From Gracilariopsis chorda (taxonomy: Eukaryota > Rhodophyta > Florideophyceae > Gracilariales > Gracilariaceae), in NCBI GenBank assembly GCA_003194525.1, contig NBIV01000079.1, positions 124,001 to 188,000 on the forward strand: a stretch of 64,000 bases of DNA. Reading direction: 5' to 3'. Position 1 is the stretch's first letter. Each line of letters begins with the position of its first letter. The notes under the pieces were generated by a model that made no database searches, had not been told where the DNA came from, and saw nothing but the letters and a program-made list of their open reading frames with translations. Both the position numbers and the translations under genes were made by a program. Shown in pieces: positions 20,701-41,640 of the stretch.

Positions 20701-20851
20701 TTGAGAGAACGTCGATCGAGCTCCCTTTATGCGGTCGGGGGAGAGGAATGAGACCGACGCCAAAGCTTTTCCAGGAAGCGAGCAACACGAACTTGCAACC
20801 CCAAACACGTACCTTTTGTGCTAACTGAGGTTTACAATACCCAGCTCAACA
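17717..20851. other. AT-rich region, no confident gene
   Basis: About 3.1 kb with only short frames (for example 18542-18742 and 18952-19188, plus strand) and no family motif. Near 17981-18010 a short piece reads CACTCCCTGGCC and matches the inner edge of the 120-bp repeats at 23739 and 39834. A lysine-rich minus-strand frame (20395-20618) behind a good-looking 3' splice site is discussed as a finding. Nothing else is supported. Confidence 0.4.
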
Positions 20852-23237
20852 TCAAAGCATTTCTAAAGCCAAAGAAGTAGAAACGAGGTCACCTAGTCCA
20901 TGATCCAGTTCATCTAAGTCCATATCGTCTTCCGCATCTTCCACTTCCTCACATGAGATGCTTTCATCATCAATAAATCTAGAATAGACCTGCCCATTAG
21001 ACCTTCCGGCTATCGTCTCACGTGCTATACCAAAACGCAGATCTGTATATGTTTCTCTACTCAACTTCCTCACTGTCATGTTATGGGAGGCAAAGAGTAA
21101 TTTATTGTGCGTACAGAACACCAGTTTCGATACCTTCTACTCATGTTAACGGTCTCGAACGGAGGTTCTTATGCGATATTGAAGGCTGAAACTTCGCTAT
21201 ACACTGGAAGAAGACGGACTAGAGCACAAGATTCTGAGAGCAAATTCTCTAAGTAAGCGAGAGACGTCGTACTCCGTCCAGAAAAACACCGGTGACCTGC
21301 TATACATCATCAAAGAATGCCTAGAAATAGGATCTTGTGTTTGTGAACGCCGAGACAACCTTGCGCCAATAAATCACATAAGCGCTGTACTGCCGCGTTC
21401 TCACCAACATTGCTGGACAACTTCTCAGTGTCTGGAAAACATTCTGAACGCACAAAAGACAAATATGTTGAATGATATGCGGCCGGGACTCACTCAGGTT
21501 CTCTTTAGGGCTTCTGATGTCAAGCAAGTACGCGACACGATGCAATGGCGTCACGAGTGGTATTTTTCCGCCTTCGCCTTTTAGTCGCTCTTCAAAAACT
21601 CGGATCACGTCGTCCCTTCTTTCTGAATTGTAGAAAGGCGTCAAGGGCAGCTGCTTAAGTTTCTCGAAGAGCTGCATAGTAGCCAGATACACCTCGGAGA
21701 GTAAGGACAACTCATCGTCAAATATTCGCAAATACTGTCGGACAAGACGCAGTATATGATATATGTCAAGGAGCTTTTCATAGAGAGATTCGTTGCGCAC
21801 GGTTTGTTTGAATACTACCCTACTTTTTCAGTTATGACCACCATAAATACTTGTGGTAAAATCCGAATAGTCGAGTAGATCGAGGAGAACCGGCTTGCTT
21901 CTCAAAAACGTAGCAACCATGCTTTTTGATGACGCAAATCGGGTTGCAGCCATCCAGCAGGGAAGAATTTCAGTTCCAGGTAGCTGAACTCTCCCGTATC
22001 TGTCTAGATGGGAAGCAGACCGTCCAGAATCACGGAAGTTGTATTCTGTCTTCAGCTCCTTGAACTTCGAATACAGTTTCGGATGGTTTCTACGGTATGC
22101 AATCACTGCGGTCACCATTGAAAGAACCTTTTTGATCCACAACAGCTGCCCAATATCTTGCATTAACACATTCGCCATGTGCGGCTGGTCCTGCATGGGA
22201 AGCATATGACTTTGTCTTTCTACAAGAAGTTCCTTGGCTTTGATGCAGGAAGAAGGGTTGTCAATTACAATAGCACATATTAGTATCATCTCTCCGAATT
22301 CCGACCTAGATTCTTCGCAAAGTCTTGCATAGAGTCCGGCGTCAACCCTCCTTGATCCGGTGTACATTGATCCTAAGAAAAAGTTCTCACGTACCTTTTG
22401 AGTACCGGTCAGGGACAGCAAAACATTGACCACTAATGCTCCGTTTCTGTCCGTTCAGCCATCAAATATCAACGTACAAAAGGTCTCTTTCAGGGAGCTC
22501 GAAATAGATCCTTTCACCCGAGTATGCATAGACTCATAGTATCTTTTCACATTTTTTCTCCACATTCCCTCTGGTGTAGGAAGTTGTAGACCCGTTGAAT
22601 GGTTTGCGAGTTTAATGAGCTGATAGGACTCATTGGAGCCTTCAACTCTGCTCAGTAAAGAAAATAGCAGCATGTATTTCACCATAAACTTTGTCAGTAG
22701 CTCATTGAACTTCGTTCGATGCTCGTACGAATCAATACTTCGATCTTCTTTTGCAACGGTACTCCGCACGAGAGATGTTTGCGGGCCAAGGCTGGATTCA
22801 GCATTGGATCTTTGAGACATCAGAATGTCTGCACCAGAGATAGTTGTGTGTCTTCGGTTCTTAGATATTGATGGCGTGACTGGAAAAGAAAAATGATCGC
22901 ATCTACCACCTTTCAAATTCGCTCTGTAATAGGCGGCAAGGTGTTTGTCTTGAAGCACTCGCTTACGATTGGCTGCAGATGTTGTGCCGCACCGCAACAA
23001 ATGTTGTCCTAGCTTGGTTGTATTTGGTATTTTAGCTTGAGCATACCACTAACAGCCTTTGCAAGTTAGTTAAATACGATTTATATTATTACCATCATTC
23101 TTGGTAAGCTCACGCATTTCAAAAATATCGGTCATCCACCATTTCTTCGTTTTTGTTTTCAATCCACTGTCTGATCCAGTAACTACGTGAATTTCTTCTG
23201 TGTGTGTGTTTGAATCAGAAAGGTTGTTGAGAGACAT
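20852..23237 (-). pseudogene. hAT-superfamily transposase (DUF659/BED type), decayed
   Basis: A single minus-strand frame from ATG 23237 to about 21321 reads as a hAT transposase. A BED-like zinc-finger remnant (C-x2-C, then HLLRC) lies near 23060-22985. A DUF659-type catalytic region follows, with ETFCTLIFDG then TDRNGALVVNVLLSLTG and AIVIDNPSSCIKAKELL, and a MANVLMQDIGQLLW segment. The C-terminal dimerisation block ALRILCSSPSSSSVYSE is readable near 21200 in another frame, with a tail to 20852. In-frame stops: TAA 23070-23072, TAG 23049-23051, TGA 22455-22457 (where DGW is expected), TGA 21828-21830, TAG 21321-21323. A frameshift separates the C-terminus. The element is dead. Terminal repeats and an 8-bp target duplication were not found. 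Confidence 0.8.
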
Positions 23238-23738
23238 CTTGTGGACAAATCACAGAGATAGTATTGGAATCTAGAACAAAACCGACGCGACGAAAGCACG
23301 AAGATCTGGGAAGGTTAGTTTGTATTCGGTATGGGGATGGAATTCGTTTTCGATTGGAGAAAAGGAAGCAAGACAGTTGCACGAAGTGGTAGACTTCGGT
23401 GCTATGGCTAGCGTGGCAGCTTGCAGTCTCGTCTTTTCTGAGCTCGTTTTTGCGCTCTTCAGTGCGCCATTGGAGCGTAAAAGGTGTATAATTGTAGTTT
23501 ATACAAATTTTGAAGTTAGGAAGCAGTTTTACATATACAGCAATGGTTGCCGGCTCTTGTAGCTTTAAGTTTACAAGAACGAATGACTATGAATATGCAT
23601 TGTAAACCGTAGAAACAGAGAGTTTCCAAAATTTTTGGGAAGATGACACAGACTGTAGCACCTGAGGAAACTTTCCAAGCCAGAACGTCACGTGGCAAGG
23701 GCAGAGGAAAGTTTCCATTTCTGATTTTCGTGGCTCCC
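23238..23738. other. Flank between hAT remnant and Copia fossil
   Basis: No gene is recognised. A palindromic GGAAA(G/C)TTTCC motif occurs twice near 23668 and 23707, and a related one near 18030. The adjoining 120-bp repeat at 23739 may mark the edge of the Copia fossil. Confidence 0.35.
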
Positions 23739-23858
23739 TGGCTGCTTCTCTGACGTTGCAGGGAGGGCAGATCAAGAATGTCATTTATTTATTGCCTCCA
23801 GTTGGAACGAGGGGACTGTATTCCACGTTCCAACTAGTGGACAGCGTAGCTCCATCCA
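23739..23858 (-). repeat. Candidate 3' LTR of the Copia fossil
   Basis: This 120-bp sequence matches 39834-39953 at about 85%. Read on the minus strand it starts TGG and ends CCA, so it has TG...CA ends. It contains AATAAATAAATGA, a possible polyadenylation signal. It lies about 250 bp beyond the RNase H remnant, where a 3' LTR is expected. No target-site duplication was found. Confidence 0.5.
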
Positions 23859-24113
23859 CACTGTCCCTCACGATCATGTCATTCAACGCAGATTGAGACT
23901 CCTACGAGTAGTAACGACCGTTAAAAAACCTATACCACAGCAAAACTTATAGGAAAAATCTGGTGTCTAGGAAAAGGTATGGCACTCTTACTACATATAA
24001 TACTTATCACAATTAAACCAGTATATATATTTTGAGAACAGAGTTGATAGAAATGAAGTAAGGTTAGTGATACATTAATGCAGTCAGATAATACTTACAA
24101 GGTTATGATGTTG

Positions 24114-24697
24114 TTAAATTAAGCCACAAAACAAGGCCAGTTTTTTAAGCGTGTCAAAGGCCACACGATTAGTGAAGATGTGGGCAGCTTGCAGGTCAGT
24201 ACATATTGATTTCAAGTCGATTACCTCAGTCTGGAGCAACTCTTTTATGTGGTAGTATTTGAGATCAATATGTTTGTTTCTTTCCGAGACCTTTGGATTC
24301 TTCAAGATTTAAATAGAAGTCGAACTGTCCGTTACTATTGAGATGGGGTACATTTGAGGTTTACTCTCCAGGACTGTTTCGTTGCGTAATTCCCAGTAGA
24401 TTCTACGAAACCAAGTAACCATGTTTCTAAAATATGATAGTGCAATATAGTTTGCCTTTCCACACGACAATGCAACACGGGTTGCTTTTTGGTCGTCCAA
24501 ATCACAGGTGCTTTGTTCATCTTTATTAGTAATCCAGTCGTAGGCTTTCTCGTCTCGCGGCGACCAGCTCAATCTGCGTCACAGAACGCTTCCATTAGTG
24601 CTGTGTTAATAGTAGGAAAAAACAAGCCAAGACCACTTGTACCCTTTAAGTAACTCAGTACTCTTTTCGCTAGCCCAACATGCTTCATTAATAGATT
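24114..24697 (-). pseudogene. Copia fossil, RNase H portion
   Basis: The minus-strand translation shows a Copia-type RNase H region: a YLKGTSGLGLFF lead-in, an active-site-like DAD, and the closing block with NKHIDLKYYHIKELL and AAHIFT. It is the missing distal part of the Copia fossil whose reverse transcriptase ends near 35070. It is broken. The right edge at 24697 is the junction with the CACTA-like element. Confidence 0.8.
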
Positions 24698-24900
24698 CCC
24701 TATGAAAAGTAATTCTGGGCCAGATAGGTACTGTAAAGGGCCAATAAATGCTCGAAAACTGACTGTGAGTACCGAAACATGGCCACGCGATGGCCTTGTT
24801 GCACGAACTAATTTTTTAGAGTTTTTTAATTGGGACAGAAAATGTCCGTTGGGAGGTCAACCGATTTCAAACGGCCAGGAAGCTGCCGTTATTGTGCTGT
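24698..24900. repeat. Left terminal and subterminal repeat of the CACTA-like element
   Basis: It begins CCCTATGAAAAG. Short motifs of the type TGGCCA and TGTCC recur (near 24718, 24739, 24781, 24790, 24850). The same motif set fills the opposite end at 34560-35067. Such subterminal arrays are transposase-binding regions in known CACTA elements. Confidence 0.6.
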
Positions 24901-25955
24901 GAATTAAGCGCTCTCAATCACTAGATCCATCGCTACTGCATATCTCACGCACCGCCATGCGCTCATCTTCACCACGCTCACAGCGCCATCGCAATCTGCC
25001 GGGCGCGTCTGCAACGCACGTCGTCACGCTTCGTGCGCGACAAAGCGCGCCTCCGCTAGGCATTCACCCCCGCCCCGGCTCTAAAAGCCCGTCTCACAAA
25101 ACCCCTCGTGCAATACTCGTCTCAAAAACCGCGCTTCATCTACTTGCGATCATGCGCCACGGACCACGCATCACATTCGTATATTCTGCCGCTCTCGCGC
25201 CGCGCTCAACACACAGAGCAAATCACGGAAAGTGGCGCACTGGTACCGAGAGACCTTGATATTGTCATGTCGCATTCTACTGCTGACGTCGACTGGCTGG
25301 TTGCCGCTGCGTGGCTGGCAAAGCATAGGGGGTCGTTTACGTTGATCTTCAAGCCTGCTGGCCAGTCCTGGGCCGTTCTTTGCTTTCTGGCGTTGTAAGG
25401 AGAGCTGCATAGGATTGTTAATCTGCATGCTGTCGACCCGATTCGAATGAGACTGGTCGGTATCATGGAAGCCATGCACTCCGATCGACTTGGTATGGCG
25501 ATTGGCCGCAGTACGGTCAAGGAGTTGAATTGTATGACTAATACCTCGGTCGTCAAGGCGAGAAATTACGCGTTGTTGTGGAGCCTTACCAACTCTGGTA
25601 AGGATGTACGGGCCAAGCACACATAGAGAACAAACAATTTGGAGAAAGAGGTATGTATTTATGCTATGTTATGAGTGTAGTGCATAGTGCAACGGAAGCA
25701 CAATGGCACCATTTCAGAAGGGCAAAGGCGAAACAGATGCGCTGGTTGCCGTCGGCGTCAGCGTTGGCTCGCACTATGCCAGTGGAAGGTAATACGGGAC
25801 AACATGATGCAGTGCTTACAACGGAGGAATGCAGCACATCGAAGGTTTCTCAGAGCCTGTGCGGTACGTAGAGCGAAGAACGGTGAAAAGATTGAACGGG
25901 CAAGCGCTTTCGATATTAACGAAATTGAGAGTGAACTTGATGAACTGCTAAAGAT
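24901..25955. other. Non-coding interior of the CACTA-like element
   Basis: A GC-richer block (about 24950-25260) carries repeated GCGCGAC/AAAGCGCGCC-type words. Frames on both strands (for example 25171-25620) overlap and show no motifs. Nothing further is supported. Confidence 0.35.
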
Positions 25956-26747
25956 TTATGACTGGTTTGCCGAAGCTATCTGACCGCCGGAGTCTTCTTC
26001 ATTAGATATTTGTGCCTGTCTAGTTTCTTTTCCACTTCGTAAGACCATGGAATTTTGAGGTAACTTATGCACCGGTTTCAAATAGTGGATGCAGTTTTTT
26101 AGAACTTTCGTTTCAACTCTAATTTCGTACACATACTGCTTGATTTCATCATCCGGATCACGATCAGTGACTTCTAGATATTGTTCAGCTCGACTGGATT
26201 GACTTGTAACAGATCCTTCTAATTCGCTCACACCGTTTGAAATAAGCGATAGTTCAGAATCAGACGAGTATTGGCTACTACTTTTTGAACTCTCCGTGTT
26301 TGGTGCAGAACTCTGTGAACGTTTGGACCATGTATTGTCTTCTGATTGCTCATCAATGTCTAAATTGCTATGCTTATGAGCATATCGAGCTCTGCGTTTA
26401 GCCAAGCGACTTTTTCTCTCTATCTGAGACTCATTCAAAACCGCCTTTCTGTATCTACTTCTGTTCCTTTCATTTTCATTGGCACGTTTATTGCCTCTCT
26501 CTCTACATAACGCCTTCCGAATTGAGGCACTGAGACGACTCGCCGTTGGTTTTGCAACATTTCCCTGCTTCTCGGAAACAGTATGGACTAATTCGGGGTC
26601 AGCATCATTATTTCGATTGTTCGGTAAGACCGCATTTACAACAAGAACTTCAGCATTTCCTTGAAGCCACACTTTGTTCAGCGGAAATTGGACGCTTTGG
26701 GGCACCATGATCTCGACATAAGAACGCTTCTCTTCATTGGAGGCCAT
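25956..26747 (-). CDS. Ser-rich protein inside the CACTA-like element, unrecognised
   Basis: A frame of 263 codons starts at ATG 26747; it is open for 25 more codons upstream without an ATG. The product has a basic block NRSRYRKAVLNESQIERKSR followed by LAKRRARYAHKHS near residues 100-135, then a long Ser/Glu-rich stretch (SSAPNTESSKSSSQYSS, DSELS). The basic block recalls short Arg-rich DNA-contacting helices in transposon proteins, but no family is recognised. The coding look (no stops over 860 bp, biased composition) makes it more than chance. It is probably a third protein of the element. Confidence 0.4.
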   Translation of the reverse strand: MASNEEKRSYVEIMVPQSVQFPLNKVWLQGNAEVLVVNAVLPNNRNNDADPELVHTVSEKQGNVAKPTASRLSASIRKALCRERGNKRANENERNRSRYRKAVLNESQIERKSRLAKRRARYAHKHSNLDIDEQSEDNTWSKRSQSSAPNTESSKSSSQYSSDSELSLISNGVSELEGSVTSQSSRAEQYLEVTDRDPDDEIKQYVYEIRVETKVLKNCIHYLKPVHKLPQNSMVLRSGKETRQAQISNEEDSGGQIASANQS

Positions 26748-26822
26748 TTCGAAATTTGTTGCTAGTGTACTACACTCACCAAAGCGCTTCAGTTTTTCGA
26801 GGCCAAAAATCGCTGGTTCCAC

Positions 26823-28849
26823 AGACGCGTTTTTCGGAAACGTTAACGATTTGAGATGACGAAGCTAGACGTGTGCGAGACCGATATGGTTCCTGCCACA
26901 AAATCTGTGACAGGAACCAAAACGTGTACAAGTTTTCGCCCTTTATTCATGTTCTTGTGGCAGGCAGGGCTTCAGCACAACGTTGGAGTGCAACGCTGCA
27001 ACTTCACAAGTACCCATGATAACACATGTATCAGGAGTACGTCCAACTGAAGCAAGCATAACCGCCACCACTTCATTCATAATGAATCGCTTCTTCTGTT
27101 ACTACCCGAGCCGCTTCTGTTCTCAATGCCAAGATCGCACAGTGCATTGAAATAGGAAATAGTCTATGGCAGGGACCCACTCTGCACTCGTTGCACACTA
27201 TGAAGCGACACCAAGAACCCACTGCAACACACAGGGGGACTCCGAGCAAGACCAAAGATGGATGGAAACAAACAGTCCAGGTGTTTCGTTCATATTTACT
27301 GTAATACAGTTTGGTCATTGCGCGGTTGCAGTATTAAAAGAAATTCTTGCTTGATGTCCTTGCTTGATGTCCGTGGCACGGATAAAAACTCTACAGCCAA
27401 ATCACTCAGTTCTGGAACAAGATCGTATCTGGTATCGTTGGTCACAGATGCACACGCTCTGCAGCAATCATCACAGCGCATCGTTGTCATGAATTACGAT
27501 TTGATTAACGAATGACAGTCTCCTCCGAATTGGTAGTCGGACGAAACTACTAGGAACGTGCCCGCAGTGTCACTATGCGCCAAACCAACGCTTCTGAATG
27601 TGATACAGTTCTGGTCAGCTCTGCGATGATTGGCATGTATGTCTCACTTTCGCTCTTGCTGTTGCACGGAATGCTATACATCGTCGATCGTACAGATCAA
27701 TGTACCGTTTGGCTAGCACAGATCATAGGTCATATGCGTTGTCAAGTAATGGCTGCGATGGGGCCGGTGGCATCTGTGGGAGCTATGCAACCGCTGAAAC
27801 TCTCAAACGCACAGTGCTGCAAACCCGCGAAACAGAGTTTAATAATTTGAAGTCAGAGCTTGCACAGAAACCACTTTAACTTGTTACCCATCATGAGCTA
27901 TCTAGATGTGAGCTTCTAGAACCATCGTGCGTGGATTGAACTGAGCACGGGAATGATACCTTATTCATGTTTTCATGAAGTGCTTCTGTAACAAGATGTT
28001 GGTAGGCCTCATTGGACCCAATTTTGATGGAGTGAAGTACTCATGCTGGGCATTATGGGCAGTGAAATCCGACAAAACTCAAGGACCTCCAAGGAAAAGC
28101 ACCGCTGACATCAAAGAGCATAAATGTGCTGCAATTATGGTTCCCTATGAAATTTTTCTTTCAGGACAGCGAGAATTCAATGCGTAGCTGGGAACACTTC
28201 GCTGAGATCAGAAGCTTTTGTTATAATGAAGGGTTTTTCCACCTACAAAACGTCTTACAAGACAATCTCCAGATCCCCATAAGGTACTCCATGCAATGGT
28301 AACGTGTACGACAAAGGTTATTCTCCGTCCGTGGATGCGCTCAAGCATTGTGCGACCACGTTCTTCAGTCCTGTACACAGACACAGGGTTTTGCACCGTA
28401 TTCACCAGTACGCATCTACTGCTACAGTTCCCTTTGCAGTGTCTACGACGTTGCAATTCTTGGCCTGCGAGCAGCTGGAACTGCGCTTCTACATCAACTA
28501 CTCGTATCATACATCTACCTCAATACTACAACTGGCGTCATATTTATGATGATATCATTGTCTTCATTGCTGTGCAGAATCGTTTCATTTTTCAAAAGGC
28601 AAAAATGGAGATCTTGATCTTTGTCTGGGAAGCAAAGAAGAGGATCATAGGCACAACGCAGAAGCACTCAGACATGTGACTCACTTGTTCATTGCGCAAG
28701 TTCTGTTATCGTTCATTTCCATTATCGCTTGTTTTACTTTCCTCTACATATCTCACATGTGCGTCATATCTAATCACCCTTGTTACAGCATTATGAGATT
28801 GTGTGGTTTAAAATCGTTGGAGTTATTCCATTATTTATCATGGTTTCGT
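26823..28849. other. Interior of the CACTA-like element without recognised gene
   Basis: About 2 kb between the Ser-rich frame and the transposase 3' end. Frames are under 130 codons on both strands, overlapping and without motifs. Nothing is supported. Confidence 0.4.
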
Positions 28850-31791
28850 ACATCCTTGCAGAATGGACTTTCTTCCAATCTTGGTTTCATTGCGATATGG
28901 ATCAAGATAGTACCTCCCTTCAATGTCAAGGAAGCCAATAACTCTCTGAATACAGCTCGCATGCTCAGTCTTCTTCATTACGTGGCCCTTTTTATCTGTC
29001 TACACAAGGTCGAGCATGTGATCCTCTACCATGCTATGCTGCCATTTAACATCTGTGAACACAGCAGCTACTCTCAACCGTGAAAGTTGGAACACAACCT
29101 CGACAATTTTTTGAATAGAACCATAATACACGTGCCACACCTTGTTCAATGCTCCTGGATCAGATGTATCCTCCGACTGCGAAGATATTTCTGGAGAAAA
29201 ATGAGCAGCGATGCAGTACCTTTGCCGTGCTTGTGCTTGTGTGGAAGAGAGTTGAGATCGCACATGGTGACAATCGATGCTTTCAATTACCAATTCGTCG
29301 GCACCTCTACTCAATGTTGCCCGTCTGAACTGCTTCAAGGATACTATGTTGGCAACATCTTTCTCATCTGGAAAGTTTTCTGCCAGAAAGTACCGTACTG
29401 CTCGCTTTTGCTCCTTGGTCAGCTTCTGGTACTTTGTCCCAGCTCCATGACCTTTTGCACCGGTGTGATATTCTGATACGCTCTCAGAACCACTGCTACG
29501 ACTTAGAGCAGCCATTGGATATGAACTTGATTCCTCAAAAATGTCTGTGAATGGTCTTCCTCCGTTGGCCACTTTCAGAGCAAACAATTTGAAGTTTTTG
29601 TGAAAGATGTGTGACGGAATATTGGACGTCTGCTGAACTCGTCTGCCTATTTCCCCTAAAAGTCTTTCTACAAGAAACTGGGAAGTGATTGGGAGGGGAC
29701 CGAATTCGTTGAGAAGCTCGGGCAAGTGCAGTATGGAATACGTGGTAGGAGTAAGACAATATGAATCATGCTTGTTTGCGCAAAAGAGCATCACGATTCT
29801 TGCATAGCATTCTTCCACCACGCGTTCGAGATCCTTAACGAACGTGTCATCACAATTGTAAGTGAAGCTTAGGTTCACCAAATGTTTTGTCTGATTCCAA
29901 AGGTTGATAATCTGTTTGTCTACTTTGAAACGATGAAAAAACGGAAGAAAATACAGTTCTGCATGGCGCTTCAGGTCTTTGGCTTTGTATCGAGACAGAT
30001 TTTGAAGAGAAAGCGGAGCTCTTCCCCAAGAGCTTGGTATCCCATGGATACAGAGATCCAAGGATTTGTTTATCCTTTCCATAATGCTGACAGGTATGCA
30101 GTACCTTGGAGTTTGTTCGAGCTTGGTGTGTCTTGGGTGAATGCATGTAAGAAGTCTGAGAACTGGTTTACTCCATCCCAAGAAGACCAAGTGCATGACA
30201 TCGTACGGAGAGGAGAAGACAGAATCCATCAGCAGGTTTGATAAGCAAGAGGGTCTTTTGATCCCTGACTCGTTAATCAGTCGTCGTTTTGAGCTCTCTT
30301 CGATGTTGCTGGAACTCAGATCTCTCCATATTCATCTAACACCTGACGCCAATCTCTTCCGTCCACATTCGTTTCTTATGATGTCACCGCTCCGGTATGA
30401 ACTTCTTCTCGCTAGAGCTTGCTTCAGAAGCAATTTGTTTTCCGGTACAGCACAAAGGCACCGTGTTTCCTTCATGTACACTCTTTTCTTCATGCAAAAT
30501 CGACAAAACAGTTTCGCTGTGTGACCAACGTAACCCAGAACTTTTGATACAGCTGGCCAATCTGCTGTGAAGTACAGAACAAAGCGTGCACACTTCTTAT
30601 GTTTCCATCATGGCAGAGTGTCATTATTCCTTTCTCTAACTCGTTCAGGTCCAAAACTATGTCCGTCATGAAGGTATCAAAGTATTGCGGGTCATGCGTT
30701 GAAGAAATAACGCTGTGGGTTAAGCAGTTTGACGCTCGGCTTCTTTCGTGAAGGGTAAAGTTTAGAATGGTGGAGATGACTGGCCAGCACGAGATGGGTT
30801 CTCCCTTGCGGTTCTGAGAGCATTCTAATCCATCTGAGAACAGCGTGAGGAAAATGACAAGGTCGTTGCCGTGTGGCGTAAACTTTTCCAGAAGTGCACT
30901 GTGCTGTCTTTGAAACATTGAGCCATGATAATAATCATGCTCTTCAACTTCAGATCGACTGTGGGAAATTGATTTCTTTGCTCTGAGAAACCCTTCCATT
31001 ATTGCACGAAAGGAATCAGGAGCACGGAAAAGCGCTTTCAGGGCTGATGATGGTTTCATGAACGAATATTTTTGAGGACTTTTCGCGAGAGAGCAATCGC
31101 AGCAGGGGCATTTGGGTACGGATTTCAGTCGTCCCGAACAAGCAACATGTCCTCTACGACACATTCTCACGAACGATTTCTCGACATGAGCCTTACGAAA
31201 CGCATACGATATAAGGCTTCTGTAATAAAAGGGCGAGGATATCGGTGCCACTTTCATCAGTCTTTCAATGGCTCTCTGGGACACATTGGACACTTCTGCA
31301 TTGTATATGAAACCAGCCAAACGTTCATATTCTTCTTGAATTGGATATTTGATATCTTCCGTTGAGTGTGCTGAAAGCTCTATGGAGTGTTCAGCGTGAT
31401 GCGAAAACGCTGGAGATGAGGAATGTATCCCAAAGACTGGTGAAAGTGGTGGTACTTCGAACGATTGGCCAAGTTGCTGTTCCAGTGTTACACTAGCACA
31501 CGTTTGGAGATCAGGACCATTTATACCGTTCTCAACATATGCACTAGCCTTCGTGAGAGAGTAATCCCCATTATGACGGTCCCCGTACTCGAGAGGAATC
31601 TTTACACTCTCTTTTTCATCAGGTTCTTGCAGGACTTCAGATTGTCGTGATGAAGTTTTAATTTCATAACCAGGTTGTTGAGAATCATTTTTCTGGGGCA
31701 CTACCCCTGGATATGCCCTTTCTTCTTCTCTACCAAAAGAAGTATCTCTCTCGACTGGACACTTGCGTGCTCGCTTTTGAGCTCCCTCCAC
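28850..31791 (-). pseudogene. CACTA-type transposase (Transposase_21 / DUF4218-like), broken
   Basis: The upstream part (31791 to 30490) carries the Transposase_21 hallmarks LVIFLTLFSDGLECSQNRKG and ISCWPVISTILNF, after a Cys-rich cluster (CRRGHVAC, CPCCDC). The middle reads GHTAKLFCRFCMKKR in a shifted frame. The downstream part (30229 to about 28850) has SPYDVMHLVFLGWSKP and a DUF4218-like ILHLPELLNEFGPLPITS. Breaks: a frameshift near 30520, TGA near 30324, TAG at 29000 before a readable tail. An N-terminal zinc-finger-like segment (KYHCK...MLRR) near 31870 lies in another frame, beside a possible splice donor GTAGGT, so the first exon may be separate. The protein would excise and insert the element. 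It lies divergently opposite the acidic gene at 32420. Confidence 0.75.
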
Positions 31792-32419
31792 ATATCTTAT
31801 CTCTGAGGAAAATCTATCTTCCTCCTCAGCATGATAATGTTCGAAAAGCGATTACCTACCTTGCAGTGATATTTCCCATCGGTATCTCTTTCTTCCTCTC
31901 CCCATATCACAGTGCTGCAGAACGATATGTTTATATGATTGATGCGGAATGAAAAAGGCAAATGACTAGTACTCACTCTGCGAATGAAGAAGATGCAACC
32001 TGCCACCGCGGAGATACAATAATTTGGGAACAATTTATTCTAAGATTTGAAAATGGCAAAAGCTTCGGGCAACACGTACTTTTCACTTCACTTATCTCTT
32101 TTCTGTTCACATGCTTGCGGTATTTGGGCATCCTTCGCCCTCTGGAACTTCTTGAAACGAGTCTCATACCCCCGGTCTCTGCATCTGAAATACTTCATTC
32201 CGTTCCTATCCCCTTTCCTTCATCTGTGACGAAGCATTAGCCTACAGCTGACGTACTTCTTCGCACCGTTCTTCACAGGTAGAACGGCCTTTCTGAGAAG
32301 GTCATTGTTTTTACAAAGAGTAAGTGTGCTCTCCATATTCTTTTGCACCAAATGCATTCCTGCATGACGCGGTTTCCTACTAACTACAAATCCTTTCTTG
32401 GTTCCTGTGTGCATTTAGC
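31792..32419. promoter_or_regulatory. Bidirectional intergenic region of the CACTA-like element
   Basis: It separates the divergent starts of the transposase (minus) and the acidic accessory gene (plus), so promoters for both should lie here. Part of it (31840-32033, minus strand) may code for the first transposase exon, ending at a donor-like CAAG|GTAGGT. No TATA box was identified with confidence. Confidence 0.35.
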
Positions 32420-34306
32420 ATGAGTGCCAGAACTCTGCAACGTGTGACTGCAGACAGTGCCATACACACTTTGCCATCGGCTGCACTTGCGCTTTCTTCC
32501 CATGCGTCCAATCAGCCACCAACCGCAGGTGAAGGTGTCGTTCGTTCAAACGGCGATATTGTTCATTCAGACATTGACGCTATTGGAGAAAGGCAGCTTC
32601 CGCCAAACTCTGTAATGATTCCAACTGCATCAATGAAGAGGTGACTAAAAGCGTCAGACCGACCAGGCGTTCCCACTGGCACCACAGTTTCCGCAAGAGC
32701 ACTCTTCAACCGTTTGTATCAAGAATGGATGCGACGCGACTCAAACGCGATGCGGGATGACTTTCCAATCTACACTGCCATGGCAAACTCCGTTAAGGAC
32801 GATATTCGCTCCTTCCGGTATCATCGATTGGGTGTGGAACGCGGTACTCGCACCTATAGGTCAGTGAGGAGAGAGTTTCCTTCGCAGTTCATACAACTGA
32901 AACGGAAGCTGGTTGAACTGTAACCTGTCTTAGCAGCTGCAAAAAGTGGTTGGGTCATGAATGGATTCATCAAGGAAGCAATTCAGAGGGATAAGAAGGC
33001 TGCTGCCGAGGCCTCCAAAAGACGAGCAAAGACTGCACAACGTGATGAACAGGTTCGCATTCAGAATGCAGAGGATTGTTTGGAGCCTCAAACGAGTACA
33101 AAGCAGACAGAACGGCCGCATTATTTCGTTGAAGCGAGATATGATGTCGACCGCCCTGGAGGAGACAGAGCGACACCTCAGAGATGGACATTGTTGGCAG
33201 CAAATGAGGATCAGGAATTTCAAGCGAGAGTTGACATTGCGGATGAGGGACATCATTCAGGTGCAGTGCATACCGGTCACATATCAGAGGATCGAAACCT
33301 ATTCGAGCATATTCATGTCGAAAATGTTTTCGAAATCGAAGACGCAGGTCACAGCGATTCCAGCAACACCGGTTCAGAATATTACGATGATGATAGTCCT
33401 GAACCTCCTCAGAATGGTGTTTCGTTGCGTTCCCTAACAAATCACTGCAATGAACGAGAGGGGAGGTGGACAAAGAAGAACAATGACATTCTCAGCAGCA
33501 AACAGGTGGATCAATCAGAGGCATCGGAGGAAGAATATGGGAATCATGAAAATGACGAGATATTTTCACGTCCGCGACAGCGAAAAACTGGTGCTCAGAA
33601 GCAGCCAAAGAAGAAGGGCATCACTGATGTAGGTGATTCGGAGGATGAAGCGGAATCGGAGCATGACGACGAAGTGATACTTCAACATCCGCGCGACATG
33701 CAAGCTGCAGCTGTTCAGCAACAGCCGAAGAGAAGCAGCCTCATCGGCAAGGAAGTTGATTCATTGGAGGAACAGTCGGAGAATGATGACGAAGATGAAG
33801 TACGTGCGCCTCCGCGTCCACGAGCTACTGTTTCTAACAAAGAGCCGAAGAAGACCGGAAAGCGTTGACACTGTCCACAAGTCAGGCAGCGAGAGCGAGT
33901 TAAGCGTAGGAAACAGGTGTCTCTTGCCACTACTAATCCTTCCCGTGGCACGTTCTTGAAAACCAAAGAAGGAAGTACTCACACTGGACTGGTTTCAACC
34001 TCGCAATTGCAGCAGAAAACACAGAAAGTTCAGAGCAATATGTCGAGAAGGAATTCTCAGAAACGTTCTGGAAAGAATCTTTTGAACAAATCCACGGCGC
34101 ATCCCCGTCCAGGCCCTGTGGCTCACCGTAAGTGGAGGAATCGTCAATATTCAACCAGCATTACCCGCGCTCTTCCACATACTTTCGAGACCAAGTAAGT
34201 GTTCATTATCCCGCTAACACCGAAAAGGCAAGATCTCTGAAGTTCTCTAATATCCTTCTCACATATCTTTTCTCACCACTACAGATTCAAGTCTACCACT
34301 ACTTAA
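32420..34306 (+). pseudogene. Acidic accessory protein of the CACTA-like element, with spliced last exon
   Basis: One plus-strand frame runs from ATG 32420 to 34194 and, after removal of a 90-nt intron, to TAA 34304-34306. It is interrupted only by in-phase TGA 32642-32644, TAA 32921-32923 and TGA 33866-33868, with no frameshift. The middle part (32957-33865) holds an imperfect repeat of about 38 residues, each with an acidic run (SEASEEEYGNHEND, DSEDEAESEHDDE, EEQSENDDEDE) followed by RP and a basic KKP/PKK stretch. The part after the third stop is strongly basic. No family is recognised. The position, divergent from the transposase, is where CACTA elements often carry a DNA-binding partner. 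Three clean stops without indels suggest decay by base change, or undetected introns. Confidence 0.5.
34195..34284 (+). other. Spliceosomal intron (90 nt)
   Basis: The donor is GTAAGT at 34195. The acceptor is a pyrimidine-rich tract ending CACTACAG at 34284. CTAAC at 34214 and CTAAT near 34246 are branch-point candidates. Splicing removes an immediate TAA and adds a short last exon of seven codons in phase. Confidence 0.6.
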
Positions 34307-34559
34307 TGATGGGGTGGCCGCGGCGGCGTTCGTACGATAGCGCTGGACCGATCTCCGTGCTACTTCTGGTTCTGCTGGGGGCGACAAGTTCTGTGTTGTC
34401 TCTGCGTTCATATGTGTTGCTACTATGTGTATTGTTCCGAGGAAAATATAGTCATCCTACCAAACCATGGATGGTGATAAGATAATAATATAAAACTTTT
34501 GAAGTCCTTTCTCTGATTTTGTTGAGCACTGATTGCGAGCAAAAAAGGGTTTCATTTAG

Positions 34560-35067
34560 TCCTAACTCTAGTACCATTGGGGCCATAATTCGACCCCAAG
34601 AAGACCGTCTTTTGTACTTGTAATGACTACGAGAAGAATGCTGCTAAGTAACGATTCAGAGCTTAATTGGGCCACAATGAGGGCTCTTTTCAGGTGCCTT
34701 AATTGTACTTGTTTTGTCCAACAATGGGTCGTATAAGTGATCCCTACGATGAGGCCCATAAAAGTCCCATGCGTAGTACAAATGTACAATTCGGGACATG
34801 TATGGACATCAATTCGTCCTGATATTGTTCCAATCTTGCCAACGTTGTGGGCTGTATTGGGAGACTTACTTCGGACTGATCGTGTCCCTATACAGGACTT
34901 CATTCGGCATGCTGAATGTGGCCATTTGTCGCCCATAATCTTTGTCCTGCTTTTGGACAACTCTCGGCCATCGTTGGGACATATACTGTCATAATTTGAA
35001 AAGATAGTTTTTGCCATCTATCGTCCATTTATTGGCCATACGTGGGCCACCTATTTTGTTCACAGGG
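34560..35067. repeat. Right subterminal repeat array of the CACTA-like element
   Basis: About 500 bp of degenerate short repeats in both orientations: TGGCCA/GGGCCAT words alternate with TGTCC/GGGACAT words at roughly 15-30 bp spacing. The terminal bases read GTTCACAGGG. The left end has a shorter array of the same words. Frames crossing it are artefacts of the repeats. Confidence 0.6.
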
Positions 35068-36320
35068 GATCATTGACCTGGCTTGCCAGCATTGAAGCAG
35101 CAAACATGATGTCTGGCCTTGATGAGACCGCCAAGTACACCACGCGTCCTACCAAGTTACGGTATGGGCCATGTACTCCAGGTGGAACATGCCGTTCTTC
35201 CTCTCGTCGTGCTTTGATGTCACATAGGGACATTCATGGTGTCCGTGCAACGTTGGAGTTCGCCAGACAATTTTCTAGCAGTTTCTTGTCAATATATCTG
35301 CATTTTTGTACCTTTATTCCGTTCCAGTCTCTCATTATGTCAAATATCACAAAACGTTTTGCCTTGTCAAGAACCTTAACCTTGAAGTGCTTCTGTAATT
35401 CTGACATAAAGTCTTCCAGAAGAGATCGGGGGTTAGAAGATGTCAATAGGTCATCAACGACTACTACGATGGTCAAGGCTCTGCTGTTGGACTTGTATAT
35501 ATAGAGTTGGCTGTTCGTGCCGGACTGTTTGAATCCCAAGCGCAATAGCTCTTTGTGAATCAGAGATCCCCATATTGTCCGACCTGTTTTGCGACGTACA
35601 CTGACTTTAGGAGCAAGGATACCTTGCCCGGAACATATGATGATTCAGAAGCGTTTTGGGGTTTCTCAATTATTAGAGGGTCGTCCAGATCCCTGTACAG
35701 GTATATATTGCTAATATCTATCGTTTCTAGTAGCAGCCCTTGCGCTGCAGCATTTGCAGACAAAAGAAGATTGGTTTTAAGTCAGGCAATGGGGATGTAC
35801 AAGTTGTCTGGGTCGTAGTTCAAGTACGAACGCTGCACGTTCACCCGTGCTACGCAACGTGCCTTTGGAATAATTCGCAGAGGGTCGAAGCTTAATGATT
35901 TTGCTAAGAACTTCCATCGGAATGGCAATGGTTTCATGCCAGTTTTTCTATCAATCAGCTTCCAAGTGTCTTTTTCTACCAACTCATTGTACTCCCTGTC
36001 GATGGCTTCTGCCCATCCTAGCATCACTTTAGCTTCTGCAAAGCTCTTGGGGATTCTGCCATCATCCCCAAGGTCCTTGGATCGTGAGTGTGCGACAATG
36101 CAATGAGCAAGAGAGGCATCTAGATGATCTTCATCATCCTCACTCATGGTTTTTTCGGCTTCGCATCTTCTAAGAGACGAGAAGTCCATAAGATCGTGGA
36201 TTGAAGAAAGGGACTCCTTTTTAACCTTAGAATCTGCCTCCTGACACTTTATTACTTTTCCCGTGGATTGGATGTATATCCTGTGCAGTTTCCGCGAGCT
36301 CTGCATCCCCACGAAGTGTG
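35068..36320 (-). pseudogene. Copia fossil, reverse transcriptase portion
   Basis: The minus-strand translation shows WAEAIDREYNELVEKDTWKL, a Copia-specific RT lead-in, then FRWKFLAKSLSF and a catalytic-region VVVDDLLTSS. The following SSRPDIMFAASML block leads toward RNase H. It is broken in several places. It ends at the junction with the CACTA-like element. Confidence 0.85.
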
Positions 36321-36399
36321 CAGGAATAGTGCGTGGTAGGAGCTTCTTATTCGCAAAGACTTCAGGCCCTTATATGAACGCGTGTCCTTCTTGCCCAAA

Positions 36400-37320
36400 C
36401 TTCAGTAAGTTTGTGAGCTACGGTTTTCGTCCGACCCATAACGTGTAAGGAACCTTCATTCCTGCTCGATGATGTGGTAGACGGTTTCTTAAGTAGTTTG
36501 CGTGAGAGATGGCTTCCTCCCAAAGTTCATGCGGTAGCTTGGAGGCAAACAGGAATGTTCTAGCCGCCTTCCACAAGTCTTGGATGACTTTCTCTGCTAC
36601 GCCGTTCGATTGTTGTGCGTACAGTGGGGTGAACTCTAGTATTATACCATGCTTCATCGCGTATGAGACAAAGTCGTCAGACCTACTCCTAACCGCCCCT
36701 TCAAGCCGAACGCAGTACATTAGGTTAGGAGGTAGTTCAATTTCCGTGCGAGCCTTGTACCAGCTGACAGATTCAAAGACCTGCGTCTTTTTACATAAAC
36801 ATTATATTGAACCTGCTCTCGTTTTGTCATTATTCAGGAATTGCGTATACTTGGAACCTTTTAAAGATGTTGGGTTAGTAGGTCCGGTGAGATCAGTTTG
36901 CGTTAACTCCAATGTTCTCTGCACCACGAAGTGTGATTGCCATAGCGGGGCACGCTTGGCACCGGCGTCAATGAACGGAGTGCATATGACATTGTTGACT
37001 TCGTCTGAGGAGAATTCCGGTACGCAATGACACAATTCAATGCATGTCAAGAGCTTTTCTCTGCCAAGTTGTCCAAGTTTCTCGTGCGAATCCTTTGCTA
37101 TGTTGACAGGTGCATGTGCCGTGGCTTGTACCTGTGGTGGTGGTACCGGGCTGGGTAGGGGATAGAGCCCGACCCTCGGAGTGGGTTGTTGTATGACTTT
37201 GCCCGTTGTGCGGTCTCTAATTATTAAGCCGTTGGAGAATTGTACCTCGACATAAGTCGCCAAGACGGATGAAGATACCAAGATAGAGTCGAAGGTTGGA
37301 GTGTGTTTGGCCGGTAACAT
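36400..37320 (-). pseudogene. Copia fossil, integrase portion
   Basis: A pre-integrase zinc-binding remnant (SHEKLGQLGREKLLTCIELC) leads into the integrase core. GIILEFTPLYAQQSNGVAEK is the conserved block around the last catalytic residue, followed by LPHELWEEAISHANYLRNRL. It is broken in several places. Confidence 0.85.
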
Positions 37321-37439
37321 AAGCCCAGTTCCGAAAGATAGCTTTATTTTTCCGCATCCTACGATCTCTGACTGGTGGTTGCAAGTGTTTACTCATTGCG
37401 AAGGTGTTTGGTGATATTCTCAGAGCAACTGTTTGTCCT

Positions 37440-38395
37440 TGATGAACACATGAATAGCCCCAGAATCTAGCGATGTTGGGGTTATTATGTCCTGGTGGAG
37501 ACTGGCATTAGCTAGTGCTATGAATCCGCGGTGGTGATTCCTGTTTTTGTGGTCATGGTTGCCGCTACCGTTTGGTCGCCCTTGGTTGTTGGCGTCGGGA
37601 GAATTGTTTGAGTCCCAAGTTCGATTGTTGTTGCGTCCTTCTCCTTTGTTATACTTATTATTGCAGCATTTATGGTTGGGCTGTTGTTAGTTATTGTTCT
37701 TATTGCGCCAAAATTCGGTCATGATGTGTCCAATGTGTCCATAATTCCAACATACGACTCCCTCTTTATTCCATTTTGTACACTGCTTGCGTCGGGTTGT
37801 AGATTTCTTCGCAGCGGGGTAAGGGAGACTGCTATCATTCTTGGCCTCTGTGATCTTCGTTGTAGATGTAGAAGCCCGGTGAATACGTTGGTCCATTTTA
37901 GATCGCAAAAGCGAAATGACTTCATCTTATTCCATGTTGGCTGCGTCGGCCAGCAGTTTGATTGAGAGATTCACTAATTTTAGCGACTTCTAAGAAGGTT
38001 GTCTCCAGCTCTAGCAAATGTCTCTGTATGTCGTCGCCATCCCTGAATGTCAAGGTGTTTAGCTTTTGGCGAAGGTTCAACTTGGATTTTGTGTTGCCCT
38101 TCTTGTCGGTGTACTCAAGTTTATTCCATACCTCCAAAGCAGAGCAGTGTTCCCGTTCGAGTAGTTCCGAAGCTGCAACGATCGGATTCGTGTAAAGGTT
38201 CTGGACGATGGCCTATCTTGCCTTACGATCGGCATCTTCCCATCTCTTTCGAGATGCAGCGGAACCCTCAAATGGACGAAGTTCCGTCAGAAGACAAATA
38301 ATGATTGTATGGAGTGCATGAGCCATTTGTAATAATCAGCGCCCCTTTTTAGACGGGTTATAAGTTTATTTTCGTTTTGAATCTCAGATTCCATT
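37440..38395 (-). pseudogene. Copia fossil, Gag and protease portion
   Basis: Gag begins at an ATG at 38395 with a GADYYKWL segment matching the Copia Gag opening. A CCHC-like knuckle (CWNYGHIGHIMTEF) lies near 37745. A protease-like LDSGAIHVF is near 37460. It is broken. Confidence 0.75.
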
Positions 38396-39242
38396 GCTTA
38401 GTACCACTCAACGCAAGACTAAGTGAGACTGGCAGAAAGGATTCTTCACCTGTCCCCTACCGGTCGAGGAATCCTTCCACTACTTTTTCGTAGCCGGTTC
38501 CACTGGCAGGAGATACTATCTCCGGTTCCCTAAAGGTCAGAGCTCTGGCTCCGAGTAAGAATCTCTCGGTGAGATGCGCCTTCAGGGGCCTCTCCAAGTT
38601 CTGCGCAATCCAGAACTAGGGTGATTGTAACTTACGGAATGTCCAGGAGAGGTTACTAACAGCAGGACATGTGTTCCCCTATTAGCCTTCTCTAAATCCT
38701 TACGGCTACTTGCGAGGAGATCGGGCTCCGTGGATTTACTTGTCCTCATTAAGGTCCCGGCCAAACGAAGAGACACCCTGTCCACTTACAAGCAGCTACA
38801 ATCACCCCAGCTGAGCCAGTTATACAGCAGGTGTGCTACCCGCAGGTTTAGTTCAAGTACCCAGTTGATTCCCAACCGGTATTTGGCTTGCCAATCTTAG
38901 CTCAGCCAAGTGCTAACTTCTGTAAAGTGTTAATAGCAGCGGAGGACCTATTCAGGACTTACGAATTTGCTCGTCTTATATTCGACTTCCCTTTCTGGGT
39001 AGTGAAACTGCGAGGCCTTAGTCATAACTTGAATGTTCCCAGATCGCCGTCGATACTTGTATTTCAAGGTTGTAGACTGCTATGAGGAGCGTGCGTAGCT
39101 GTGATGAGTCGCCACTAGAAGATTCAGGTGGTCAGTTCAGACCGGACATCCGGGGCAGGGGTTGTTCAACGACACGGTTGCTTTCAAGAAGCGTCTAGTG
39201 TGCACGCTCTAACGCAAAGAAGAATAAGGGGGGGTACGACGA
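38396..39242. other. Leader region of the Copia fossil, no gene
   Basis: It lies between the Gag start and the G-rich minisatellite, where the primer-binding site and leader would be. TGGTAC at 38401-38406 (minus strand) faintly recalls a primer-binding site but is far from the candidate 5' LTR. No coding motif is seen. Confidence 0.3.
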
Positions 39243-39480
39243 GACAGCCCAGTAGTGTACGTGTGGGGAGGGGCGGGGGATGGCCAGGACAGCATGCAAA
39301 CCAAGTAGTATGTGCGCCAGAGGGGAGAGTGACGTCGACAAAACGGCAGCCAAGTAGTAGGTTCATCGAAGGGGGGGGCAGGGTGGCGGCGAAAACATGG
39401 CAGCCAAGTAGTGTGTGCGCCAAGAAGGGGGCACAGCAAAAAGACGGGAGCCAATTAATATGTTCGTAGAGGGGGGGAAT
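39243..39480. repeat. G-rich minisatellite, about 50-bp period, five units
   Basis: Units begin near 39243, 39297, 39347, 39402 and 39448. Each reads roughly GCAGCCAAGTAGT, then TGTGCGCCA, then a G-run of four to nine. The strand is strongly purine-biased, and G-quadruplex formation on the plus strand is plausible. Confidence 0.7.
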
Positions 39481-39614
39481 GGCAGCTAAGACACTGCGGG
39501 AAGAGGGTTGGGTGCGGCGTCGGGGCAGCCGGGTTCCCAAACAAGATATTCAGAGGGGTGGGTTCCCGCGGAAAGGCAACCAATAAAAGTTCTCAGACGG
39601 GAGAAGTGTGGCCG

Positions 39615-39775
39615 CGCAAGCGTAGGCGTGGGTGTGCGACAGCGCGCGCGCAGGAGAGGATAGTGGTTGCGCGGCAGCGCACGCACGTGCGTAGAGGGTG
39701 GATGTGGGGTAGCGTGCGCGTGGGCGGAGAAGGTGGGTTTGTCGTAGCGCGCGCGAATAGAAACGCGGAAGGTGT
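39615..39775. repeat. GC-rich minisatellite, about 35-bp period, four units
   Basis: Each unit has a GTGGG(T/C)-type start and an alternating purine-pyrimidine tract such as AGCGCGCGCGCAG, AGCGCACGCACGTGCG, AGCGTGCGCG or AGCGCGCGCGAA. Such tracts can adopt Z-DNA. The array follows directly after the 50-bp minisatellite. Confidence 0.55.
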
Positions 39776-39833
39776 CGTCCGGGGGGTGCTTCAGCGACAA
39801 TCCTATCATGTAGTGGGGTTAGAGTTTACTCCC

Positions 39834-39953
39834 TGGCTGCTTCTTCGGCCTTATGGGAAGGGCAGATCAGGGAGGTCATTTATTTATTGCCTCCAGTTGG
39901 AACGAGGGGACTTTATTCCCCGTTTCCACTAGTGGCTAGCGTAACTCCATCCA
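39834..39953 (-). repeat. Candidate 5' LTR of the Copia fossil
   Basis: It is the partner of 23739-23858 at about 85% identity, in the same orientation, with TG...CA ends on the minus strand and the AATAAATAAATGA block. The Gag start is 1.4 kb downstream, unusually far for Copia, so an unrelated dispersed repeat is the alternative. Confidence 0.5.
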
Positions 39954-40220: not shown

Positions 40221-41640
40221 TTATTGTAGAACAGGGTGTTTTATGCTTACTAGCATTGGATGAAAATCGTGCGAATTTCGGGGCGTCTCGTCTTCACTAT
40301 GAAGCAGTAACACATCATCAGAGTCTCTCACACGCGACAGCCCAACCTACGCTAGACCCGGCAAAAAAAAGTTTTTTCGAAAGTCAACTAAAATTTTCTC
40401 TTCTCCAGCGTCTGTCCTTGCGCTTTATGCAGAGTTGCTGCGAATACCAATCTGATGGAAAACTGTCGAAGTTTGATTTTCAATCTACAAACTCAAAGAA
40501 AAAGTCAATACGATGTAGTAAAAAGCTTTGCTCAAATTCCTCATGTTTATCTATGCCCGAAATTCTAATCACTCTGCGGGAAATGCTGTCAATGATAAAC
40601 ATCTTTCCATTCAGTAAGTGCGGATGAAGCAGTTTCGAATCAAAATAACAGCAACACCCAACTTCAATTTCAAATGATGGTGCAGGACTCCAGTTGTAGC
40701 GTAATTATACGTTAGTTCAAGTCCATTGATACTATTTGTGTGAAAGTTTTCACCGTTTGTCCCTCGACTGGGAAAGTTCGTCGTTTCGAACTTCAAGTCA
40801 AATATTTTTTTTGGGAAATATTCAATGCGCTCTGTTTATGTTACTCCATTATTTGGTTTGTTGGCGCAACAATGAATCGGTTGAGCGTGACATCTTCCTT
40901 CTTCGGTGTTGTAAACCATTTCCACAGCAATTTTTATGCTTCGTGTACATCTGATGGAGACCTGAGTCGAAGCCTTGCAAATGCTGAAAACGTCGCATGA
41001 CCAAGACTGGGCAAACGTTTGGCAAAATCTGGATCATCTTGTTGACAAACCTGTTCTGAAAGGCGAAGAACTTTGACTATTCCGTCCCGGAGCTCGCAAG
41101 AGTACCATGAAAACTTCTGTAGCAGACTCACTGGAATAACAGGAATTGTTCCATCCATTTCGGATACTGTTCTCGTTCTTGGAACCACTGAAATCAGTTG
41201 CAGATAGTGGCCGGCCATAACTACGACCATGCTTCCAAAGTCTTTCGTAGAATTTCTTAAGTACTTCAATACGATGTTCACAATCTCGAGGAGCATTTTC
41301 GGGCAAATTGAAGCTTCAAAAACTACCAGCAAAACAGTTCTCCGGATTAATTCTGTTCTCTGTAAACGTGGTCCGTACTTCGAAAGTGTCCGACTCTCTA
41401 ATTTGCGAATCTTTGTTGCCATAGACTCCAAATCCAAACAAGCTATGCAAAGTTCTTCCGCCTTCATATATTGCAGCAGTAATACCTGTCTTGGCTTTCA
41501 TCTGCACCAATAGGCCTTCGTGCTGAACAATGTCTCTTAGCAAAGACATATAATAGGTCTTCCCTGTCCCCGCTCGTCCTTGTAAGAATTAAACGCTTCC
41601 GTGTGTGTTGAGTATTTCAGACTCTTCCATTCTCTCTCGG
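40221..41640 (-). pseudogene. Helitron 1, Pif1-type helicase domain
   Basis: Motifs run in order on the minus strand. The lead is FDYLKEGQKQVFDKIM. Walker A is intact as GRAGTGKTYYM at 41552-41582 but is separated by a frame change from the lead. KTGITAAIYEGGRTLHSLFG matches helicase motif Ia. Walker B reads VVFEAS, so the expected DEAS Asp is replaced. Motif III reads VVVMAGHYLQL, with His for the usual Asp. The C-terminus has GLSRVRDSDDVLLHSEDE near 40300. Substitutions at catalytic positions point to decay. Confidence 0.8.

What the first reader, a model, noticed from the sequence alone, without database searches (positions are those of the whole stretch)
23739..39953. A 10.4-kb CACTA-like transposon nested inside a Copia fossil
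Copia parts on the minus strand stop at about 35070 (after reverse transcriptase) and resume at about 24697 (RNase H), collinear and complementary in content. The intervening block has matching inverted ends (CCCTATGAA / CCCTGTGAA), shared subterminal words (GGCCAATAAATG) and GAT at both junctions. This fixes the boundaries of a large DNA transposon whose ends do not begin with CACTA.
Basis: partly seen in the sequence, partly recalled or inferred. Interest (0 to 1): 0.7.

Follow-up and report, generated by a model that had tools for sequence, protein, structure and literature searches.

The report
CCC-ended CACTA-type transposon inside Copia
A decayed 10.4-kb cut-and-paste DNA transposon of the CACTA kind, with CCC instead of CACTA tips, landed inside an older Copia retrotransposon, and sister copies and uninterrupted Copia copies in the same genome fix its exact ends and a 4-base target duplication.

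Summary
The finding is real and can be fixed to the base. The transposon is window 24698-35067 (10,370 bp), tips CCCTATGAA.. / ..TTCACAGGG. Its target site duplication (TSD) is 4 bp, not 3: GATT 24694-24697, GATC 35068-35071. In 31 of 31 distinct Copia paralogues read, four bases stand between the two flanks, GATC in 23. Four other genomic copies start at the same point; three of them also end there with exact 4-bp TSDs (GTAA, TTAC, CATT), and the fourth's right tip is altered. The C9 copy is 10,373 bp and 96.6% identical throughout.

The transposase matches Pfam Transposase_21, has the motif order of the CACTA/Mirage/Chapaev/Transib clade, and a low-confidence model of a relative resembles RAG1 and Transib most. 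A divergent second ORF recurs beside related transposases. A second subfamily in this genome also has CCC tips but 3-bp TSDs (3 of 4 pairs).

CCC tips are published for animal "TRC" elements, which make 2-bp TSDs, so this is a variant, not a new kind. Correction: the Copia does not begin at 23739; a 5.7-kb hAT-like transposon (18009-23733, TSD CTCCCTGG) splits its lower LTR.

The parts
24698..35067 (-). CACTA-clade DNA transposon, 10,370 bp, given on the strand of its transposase
   Evidence: left end shared by five of five copies, right end by four of five; C9 copy 10,373 bp, 96.57% identical end to end; four bases between the flanks in 31 of 31 paralogues read
24698..24707 (+). left terminal inverted repeat CCCTATGAAA (CCCTATGAAC in the four other copies)
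35058..35067 (-). right terminal inverted repeat, CCCTGTGAAC read inward
24694..24697 (.). left target site duplication, GATT
   Evidence: uninterrupted paralogues read GATC in 23, GATT in 1 of 31
35068..35071 (.). right target site duplication, GATC
   Evidence: same comparison
24698..24947 (.). left subterminal cluster of GGCCA words (6, both strands)
34818..35067 (.). right subterminal cluster of GGCCA words (6, both strands)
28838..31905 (-). transposase gene (about 1,020 codons), broken in this copy by a 1-bp deletion near 30580 relative to C9 and by stops; first D within 30823-30849, second D within 30551-30571, C(2)C within 30494-30508, YDVMH 30176-30205, H(3)H site 29726-29746 (first H is Y here), E within 29651-29683
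   Evidence: Transposase_21 E 6.8e-13 and Plavaka E 8.1e-09 on the first frame of the C9 copy
32615..34135 (+). second ORF, divergent from the transposase; 506 aa in the C9 copy, N-terminal ~145 aa conserved, charged low-complexity tail; broken here
25956..26864 (-). third ORF (302 aa stop to stop here), function unknown
35072..39784 (-). Copia, upstream half with the reverse transcriptase, decayed
   Evidence: RVT_2 in 35234-35644 E 4.8e-17; paralogue alignment to 36600
23860..24693 (-).
   Evidence: adjacent to the upstream half in paralogues
39785..39953 (-). Copia upstream LTR (outer limits approximate)
17963..23859 (-). Copia downstream LTR, split: about 17963-18008 and 23742-23859, with the hAT-like transposon between
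18009..23733 (-). hAT-like DNA transposon, 5,725 bp, TSD CTCCCTGG at 18001-18008 and 23734-23741, ORFs on -
   Evidence: DUF659 E 3e-07, below its cut-off

Best explanation
A cut-and-paste DNA transposon of the CACTA/Mirage/Chapaev/Transib (CMCT) clade, with CCC tips, inserted at a four-base site, most likely GATC, in the pol gene of an already resident Copia retrotransposon. Shown: the ends, the 4-bp duplication, the empty site, four sister copies, a transposase gene with the clade's motif order, and a second ORF conserved in the group. Inferred: its transposase bound the short terminal inverted repeats and the clustered subterminal GGCCA words (perhaps with the second protein, as TNPA does in En/Spm; that role is recalled), cut the element out and joined its ends to target strands at positions 4 bp apart, so that repair gave a 4-bp duplication. 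Near-equal distances suggest that at least four copies were made in one burst; since then the transposase genes have decayed. The transposase frame of the window copy is broken, so this copy could at best move with help.
Confidence: 0.94

Rival explanations
1. A standard CACTA element with a 3-bp TSD (GAT) and tips TCCC/CCCC.
For: GAT is identical at both window junctions, while the fourth base differs; plant CACTA elements make 3-bp TSDs (PMC10741241, passages); the second subfamily here shows 3 bp in 3 of 4 pairs.
Against: With 3 bp, C5, C9 and C28 would need tips of differing length; with 4 bp all three are exact. 31 of 31 empty sites read hold four bases.
Confidence: 0.03
2. The two Copia parts are unrelated fragments and the block between them is a composite or rearrangement, not one insertion.
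For: Copia and transposon are both decayed and a second, hAT-like transposon also interrupts the Copia.
Against: Both parts lie side by side in 31 of 31 paralogues read, and the block recurs with the same left end at four other places and the same right end at three.
Confidence: 0.01
3. It belongs to the TRC/Mirage branch proper (CCC tips), rather than being a separate branch of the clade.
For: Published TRC tips CCCTAGTAGC (Tribolium), CCCAGTCAAC (Aedes) and CCCAGCCAAC (Hydra Spongebob) resemble CCCTATGAAC and CCCAGTGAGG here (PMC1636069, PMC4298943).
Against: TRC elements make 2-bp TSDs (same papers), here 4 bp and 3 bp; no TRC protein was at hand to compare.
Confidence: 0.4
4. It is a Plavaka element.
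For: Pfam Plavaka above cut-off on the C9 frame, E 8.1e-09.
Against: Plavaka is below cut-off in the other two frames and Transposase_21 scores better in all three; Plavaka tips are TGT..ACA or CATCA..TGATG with 2-3 bp TSDs (PMC12730594, passages).
Confidence: 0.05

Closest known systems
TRC elements (SmTRC1 of Schistosoma, Tribolium and Aedes TRCs, Spongebob of Hydra)
   Same: Transposase_21 domain (SmTRC1); CCC tips; SmTRC1 insertions into LTR retrotransposons shown with empty sites (PMC1636069 sections 5-6; PMC4298943 passages)
   Different: 2-bp TSD there, 4 bp here and 3 bp in the sister subfamily; SmTRC1 about 4.5 kb with a 560-aa ORF and a 54-bp TIR, here 10.4 kb, about 1,020 codons, a 10-bp TIR and further ORFs
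EnSpm/CACTA of plants
   Same: Transposase_21 domain, large size, short TIR; clustered subterminal words and a second gene (recalled for En/Spm)
   Different: CACTA tips and 3-bp TSD there (PMC10741241 passages); CCC tips and 4-bp TSD here
Chapaev
   Same: same clade; 3-4 bp TSD (PMC4079192 passages)
   Different: invariable CAC..GTG tips and H(4)H there; CCC..GGG and H(3)H here
Plavaka (fungi)
   Same: Pfam Plavaka profile above cut-off for the C9 frame
   Different: tips and TSD length (PMC12730594 passages)
Transib/RAG1
   Same: fold resemblance of the modelled core of a relative; D..D..C(2)C..H(3)H..E order
   Different: no sequence match in PDB for the C9 577-aa frame; model of low confidence; different tips (recalled)

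Membership tests
CMCT clade (CACTA/EnSpm, Mirage, Chapaev, Transib, Plavaka and kin) | transposase similar to the clade's profiles | tested here: met
   Transposase_21 E 6.8e-13, 7.4e-11 and 2.7e-17, above cut-off in the three frames given that hold the domain; the C9 C-terminal frame had no match
CMCT clade (CACTA/EnSpm, Mirage, Chapaev, Transib, Plavaka and kin) | C(2)C and H(3-4)H between second D and E (PMC12730594 passages) | tested here: met
   CRFC, TTHSILH, SQFLVER in order in the relatives; first H is Y in the window copy
CMCT clade (CACTA/EnSpm, Mirage, Chapaev, Transib, Plavaka and kin) | 2-5 bp TSD | tested here: met
   4 bp
CMCT clade (CACTA/EnSpm, Mirage, Chapaev, Transib, Plavaka and kin) | CA..TG tips (given as 'in most cases', so not strictly defining) | tested here: not met
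   CCC..GGG
CMCT clade (CACTA/EnSpm, Mirage, Chapaev, Transib, Plavaka and kin) | RAG1/Transib-like catalytic fold | tested here: inconclusive
   best matches RAG, then HzTransib and BbRAGL, but mean pLDDT 49
CACTA/EnSpm in the strict sense | tips begin with CACTA/CACTG | tested here: not met
   CCCTATGAA / CCCTGTGAA in the window; CCC left tip in five of five copies
CACTA/EnSpm in the strict sense | 3-bp TSD | tested here: not met
   exact 4-bp TSD in three copies and four bases in 31 of 31 empty sites read
TRC/Mirage-type | CCC tips | tested here: met
TRC/Mirage-type | 2-bp TSD | tested here: not met
TRC/Mirage-type | transposase groups with SmTRC1 in a tree | not testable with these tools
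   no eukaryotic protein collection at hand
Chapaev | CAC..GTG tips | tested here: not met
Plavaka | TGT..ACA or CATCA..TGATG tips, 2-3 bp TSD | tested here: not met
Copia (surrounding element) | RVT_2 reverse transcriptase | tested here: met
   E 4.8e-17
Copia (surrounding element) | paired LTRs | tested here: met
   125 nt at 86%, extended across the hAT-like insert; outer TSD not resolved
hAT (element 18009-23733) | 8-bp TSD | tested here: met
   CTCCCTGG twice
hAT (element 18009-23733) | hAT transposase profile | tested here: inconclusive
   only DUF659, E 3e-07, below its cut-off, in one of three ORFs given

The most novel reading that the evidence does not exclude
In this genome, probably that of a red alga, one branch of CACTA-clade transposons keeps CCC tips while its target-cut spacing differs between sister subfamilies: 4 bp in the window's family and 3 bp in a relative with a 30-33% identical transposase. 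TSD length would then evolve quickly within one transposase lineage and should not be used to sort this clade into superfamilies. The branch would also carry a conserved, divergently transcribed second gene of unknown fold.
Probability: 0.55. Interest if true: 0.45.

Novelty: new variant of a known kind. Interest (0 to 1): 0.33.

Why it matters
The insertion gives base-exact ends, tip sequence and TSD for a CACTA-clade lineage in what is probably a red alga, with the empty site seen in 31 paralogues. That makes the family annotatable and shows that CCC tips go with a 4-bp (and, in a sister subfamily, 3-bp) target cut, not only the 2-bp cut published for animal TRC elements. The window is also an ordered nest: Copia first, then a CACTA-type and a hAT-like element. 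It is otherwise ordinary transposon biology, and the family may already be in Repbase.

Tried and rejected

Organism not established: one Phycobilisome-family match in the assembly, 28.1 bits against a cut-off of 22.2, suggests a red alga; that the assembly size fits some red seaweeds is recalled. Papers: passages seen in PMC12730594, PMC4079192, PMC4455052, PMC4298943, PMC10741241; passages and sections 5 and 6 of PMC1636069; all others only in search listings. No paper on a red-algal CCC-tipped CACTA element with a 4-bp TSD appeared among the rows listed (several lists were cut at 10 or 20 rows); Repbase was not searchable, and it held 1,181 Chondrus crispus entries in 2015 (passage), so the family may be recorded there.

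Full report
Observation. The window lies in a 91.3-Mb assembly of 1,081 contigs. The first base of the element is 24698 and the last 35067, 10,370 bp. The left tip reads CCCTATGAAA and the right tip, read inward, CCCTGTGAAC. The four bases outside are GATT on the left and GATC on the right.

Other copies. A search with the left 401 bases found five copies including the window's, and a search with the right 501 bases found the same five. They lie on C79 (window), C9, C5, C28 and C297. Five of five start at CCCTATGAA and four of five end at TTCACAGGG; C297 has TTCACAAGGG there. The C9 copy is uninterrupted: 10,373 bp, one alignment from end to end, 96.57% identical. C5, C28 and C297 carry further insertions inside the element. 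TSDs: C5 GTAA/GTAA, C9 TTAC/TTAC, C28 CATT/CATT, window GATT/GATC; C297 unresolved.

Empty site. Searches with 301 bases at either junction each listed 39 non-self places, out of 98 and 96 candidates of which 40 were scored; 32 of the 39 pair up side by side. From the fetched loci I took 31 distinct places, after dropping the window's own two loci and five that repeat a place, and aligned the window's 60-base flanks, with the left copy's four bases between them, to each. In 31 of 31 exactly four bases lie between the flanks: GATC in 23, GCTC 3, GGTC 2, TCTC, GACC and GATT one each. So the insertion duplicated four bases, most likely GATC, and the left copy has since changed to GATT.

Ends. GGCCA on both strands occurs 6 times in each 250-bp end, against 0.62 per 250 bp in 4 kb of the interior and a shuffle mean of 1.2 for both ends together; 0 of 500 shuffles reached 12. 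The word was chosen after seeing the ends. Clustered subterminal words are usual in CACTA elements (recalled).

A second ORF on the plus strand (506 aa in C9) matches 17 contigs besides those of the five copies. In 13 of the 17 (C231, C215, C101, C21, C194, C843, C81, C248, C513, C771, C243, C308, C342) it lies within about 1.5 kb of a transposase match and points away from it, as in the window; identities are 39-50% in the nearer relatives and 26-29% in the C81 group. In C47, C53 and C103 the nearest transposase match is farther off, and C97 has none. It is therefore a real gene of this group, not a chance frame. A third ORF (minus strand) has relatives on C843, C231, C47, C21 and C782. Neither has a recognised domain.

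Second subfamily. The element on C144 (L076 1987-7784, about 5.8 kb) belongs with the C81 group, whose transposases (C81, C144) are 30-33% identical to the window family's. Its tips are CCCAGTGAGG.. and CCCACCGAGG... Searches list 19 left and 13 right matches; I read 7 left and 11 right tips. CCC stands at 6 of 7 left tips (C256 reads TCC), GGG at 10 of 11 right tips (C308 differs). Of four copies with both tips read, three show 3-bp duplications (C144 TTG, C243 TTT, C233 TAT) and one, on C53, none.

History. The window, C9, C28 and C5 copies are 96.1-96.5% identical pairwise in the transposase region, C297 94.3-94.4% to each: near-equal distances, as after one burst (inference). Pairwise dN/dS of 0.54-1.11 fits changes that fell mostly after function was lost. 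The Copia looks older: its halves are about 74-85% identical to paralogues and its LTRs 86% to each other over 125 nt.

The Copia's left limit. In several paralogues the LTR continues to the left of the window's 23734. In the window that continuation lies at about 17963-18008, and between the two parts is a 5,725-bp element with the 8-bp duplication CTCCCTGG and one ORF with a weak DUF659 match, a hAT-like transposon. An element with similar tips sits in the C5 copy of the CACTA-type transposon with the 8-bp duplication CTTCGGAG (read by eye).

Comparison. Plant CACTA elements have CACTA tips and 3-bp TSDs (PMC10741241 passages). Chapaev has CAC tips and 3-4 bp TSDs (PMC4079192 passages). CCC tips are published for TRC elements of Schistosoma, Tribolium, Aedes and Hydra, with 2-bp TSDs (PMC1636069 sections 5-6; PMC4298943 passages). 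The element here works like a CACTA transposon and belongs to the wider clade, but fails the tip and TSD features of CACTA proper and the TSD feature of TRC. I call it a new variant of a known kind.

Host. Not named by the tools; probably a red alga (one Phycobilisome-family match). If it is Chondrus crispus or close to it, Repbase may already hold the family.

Noticed in passing
window 18009-23733: hAT-like DNA transposon, 5,725 bp, inserted in the Copia's lower LTR with TSD CTCCCTGG; minus-strand ORFs, DUF659 E 3e-07 below cut-off.
   Followed up: partly
C5 copy of the element, between L049 and L050: A hAT-like insertion of about 9 kb inside the CACTA-type element, TSD CTTCGGAG, tips CCAGGAA..TTCCTGG like those at window 18009 and 23733.
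   Followed up: partly
window 40934-41497, minus strand (ORFs go on to 42821): PIF1-like helicase ORF (E 8.7e-09) just outside the Copia; perhaps a decayed Helitron.
   Followed up: no
window 39273-39476: Four copies of a repeat of about 54 bases, 61-70% alike, within the Copia near its upstream LTR.
   Followed up: no
C28 copy (L048/L051) and C297 copy (L043/L044): Further nested insertions of about 7 kb and 2.7 kb inside sister copies of the element, not identified.
   Followed up: no
L092 1495-2484, minus strand: The one Phycobilisome-family match found in the assembly (28.1 bits) lies in a 329-aa ORF; the neighbouring ORF at 353-1312 looks like a peptide deformylase (recalled motif, not tested).
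   Followed up: no
C81 27670-31241, C513 12523-16096: Three separate matches each, in a row, to the left end of the second subfamily, suggesting rearranged or nested copies.
   Followed up: no
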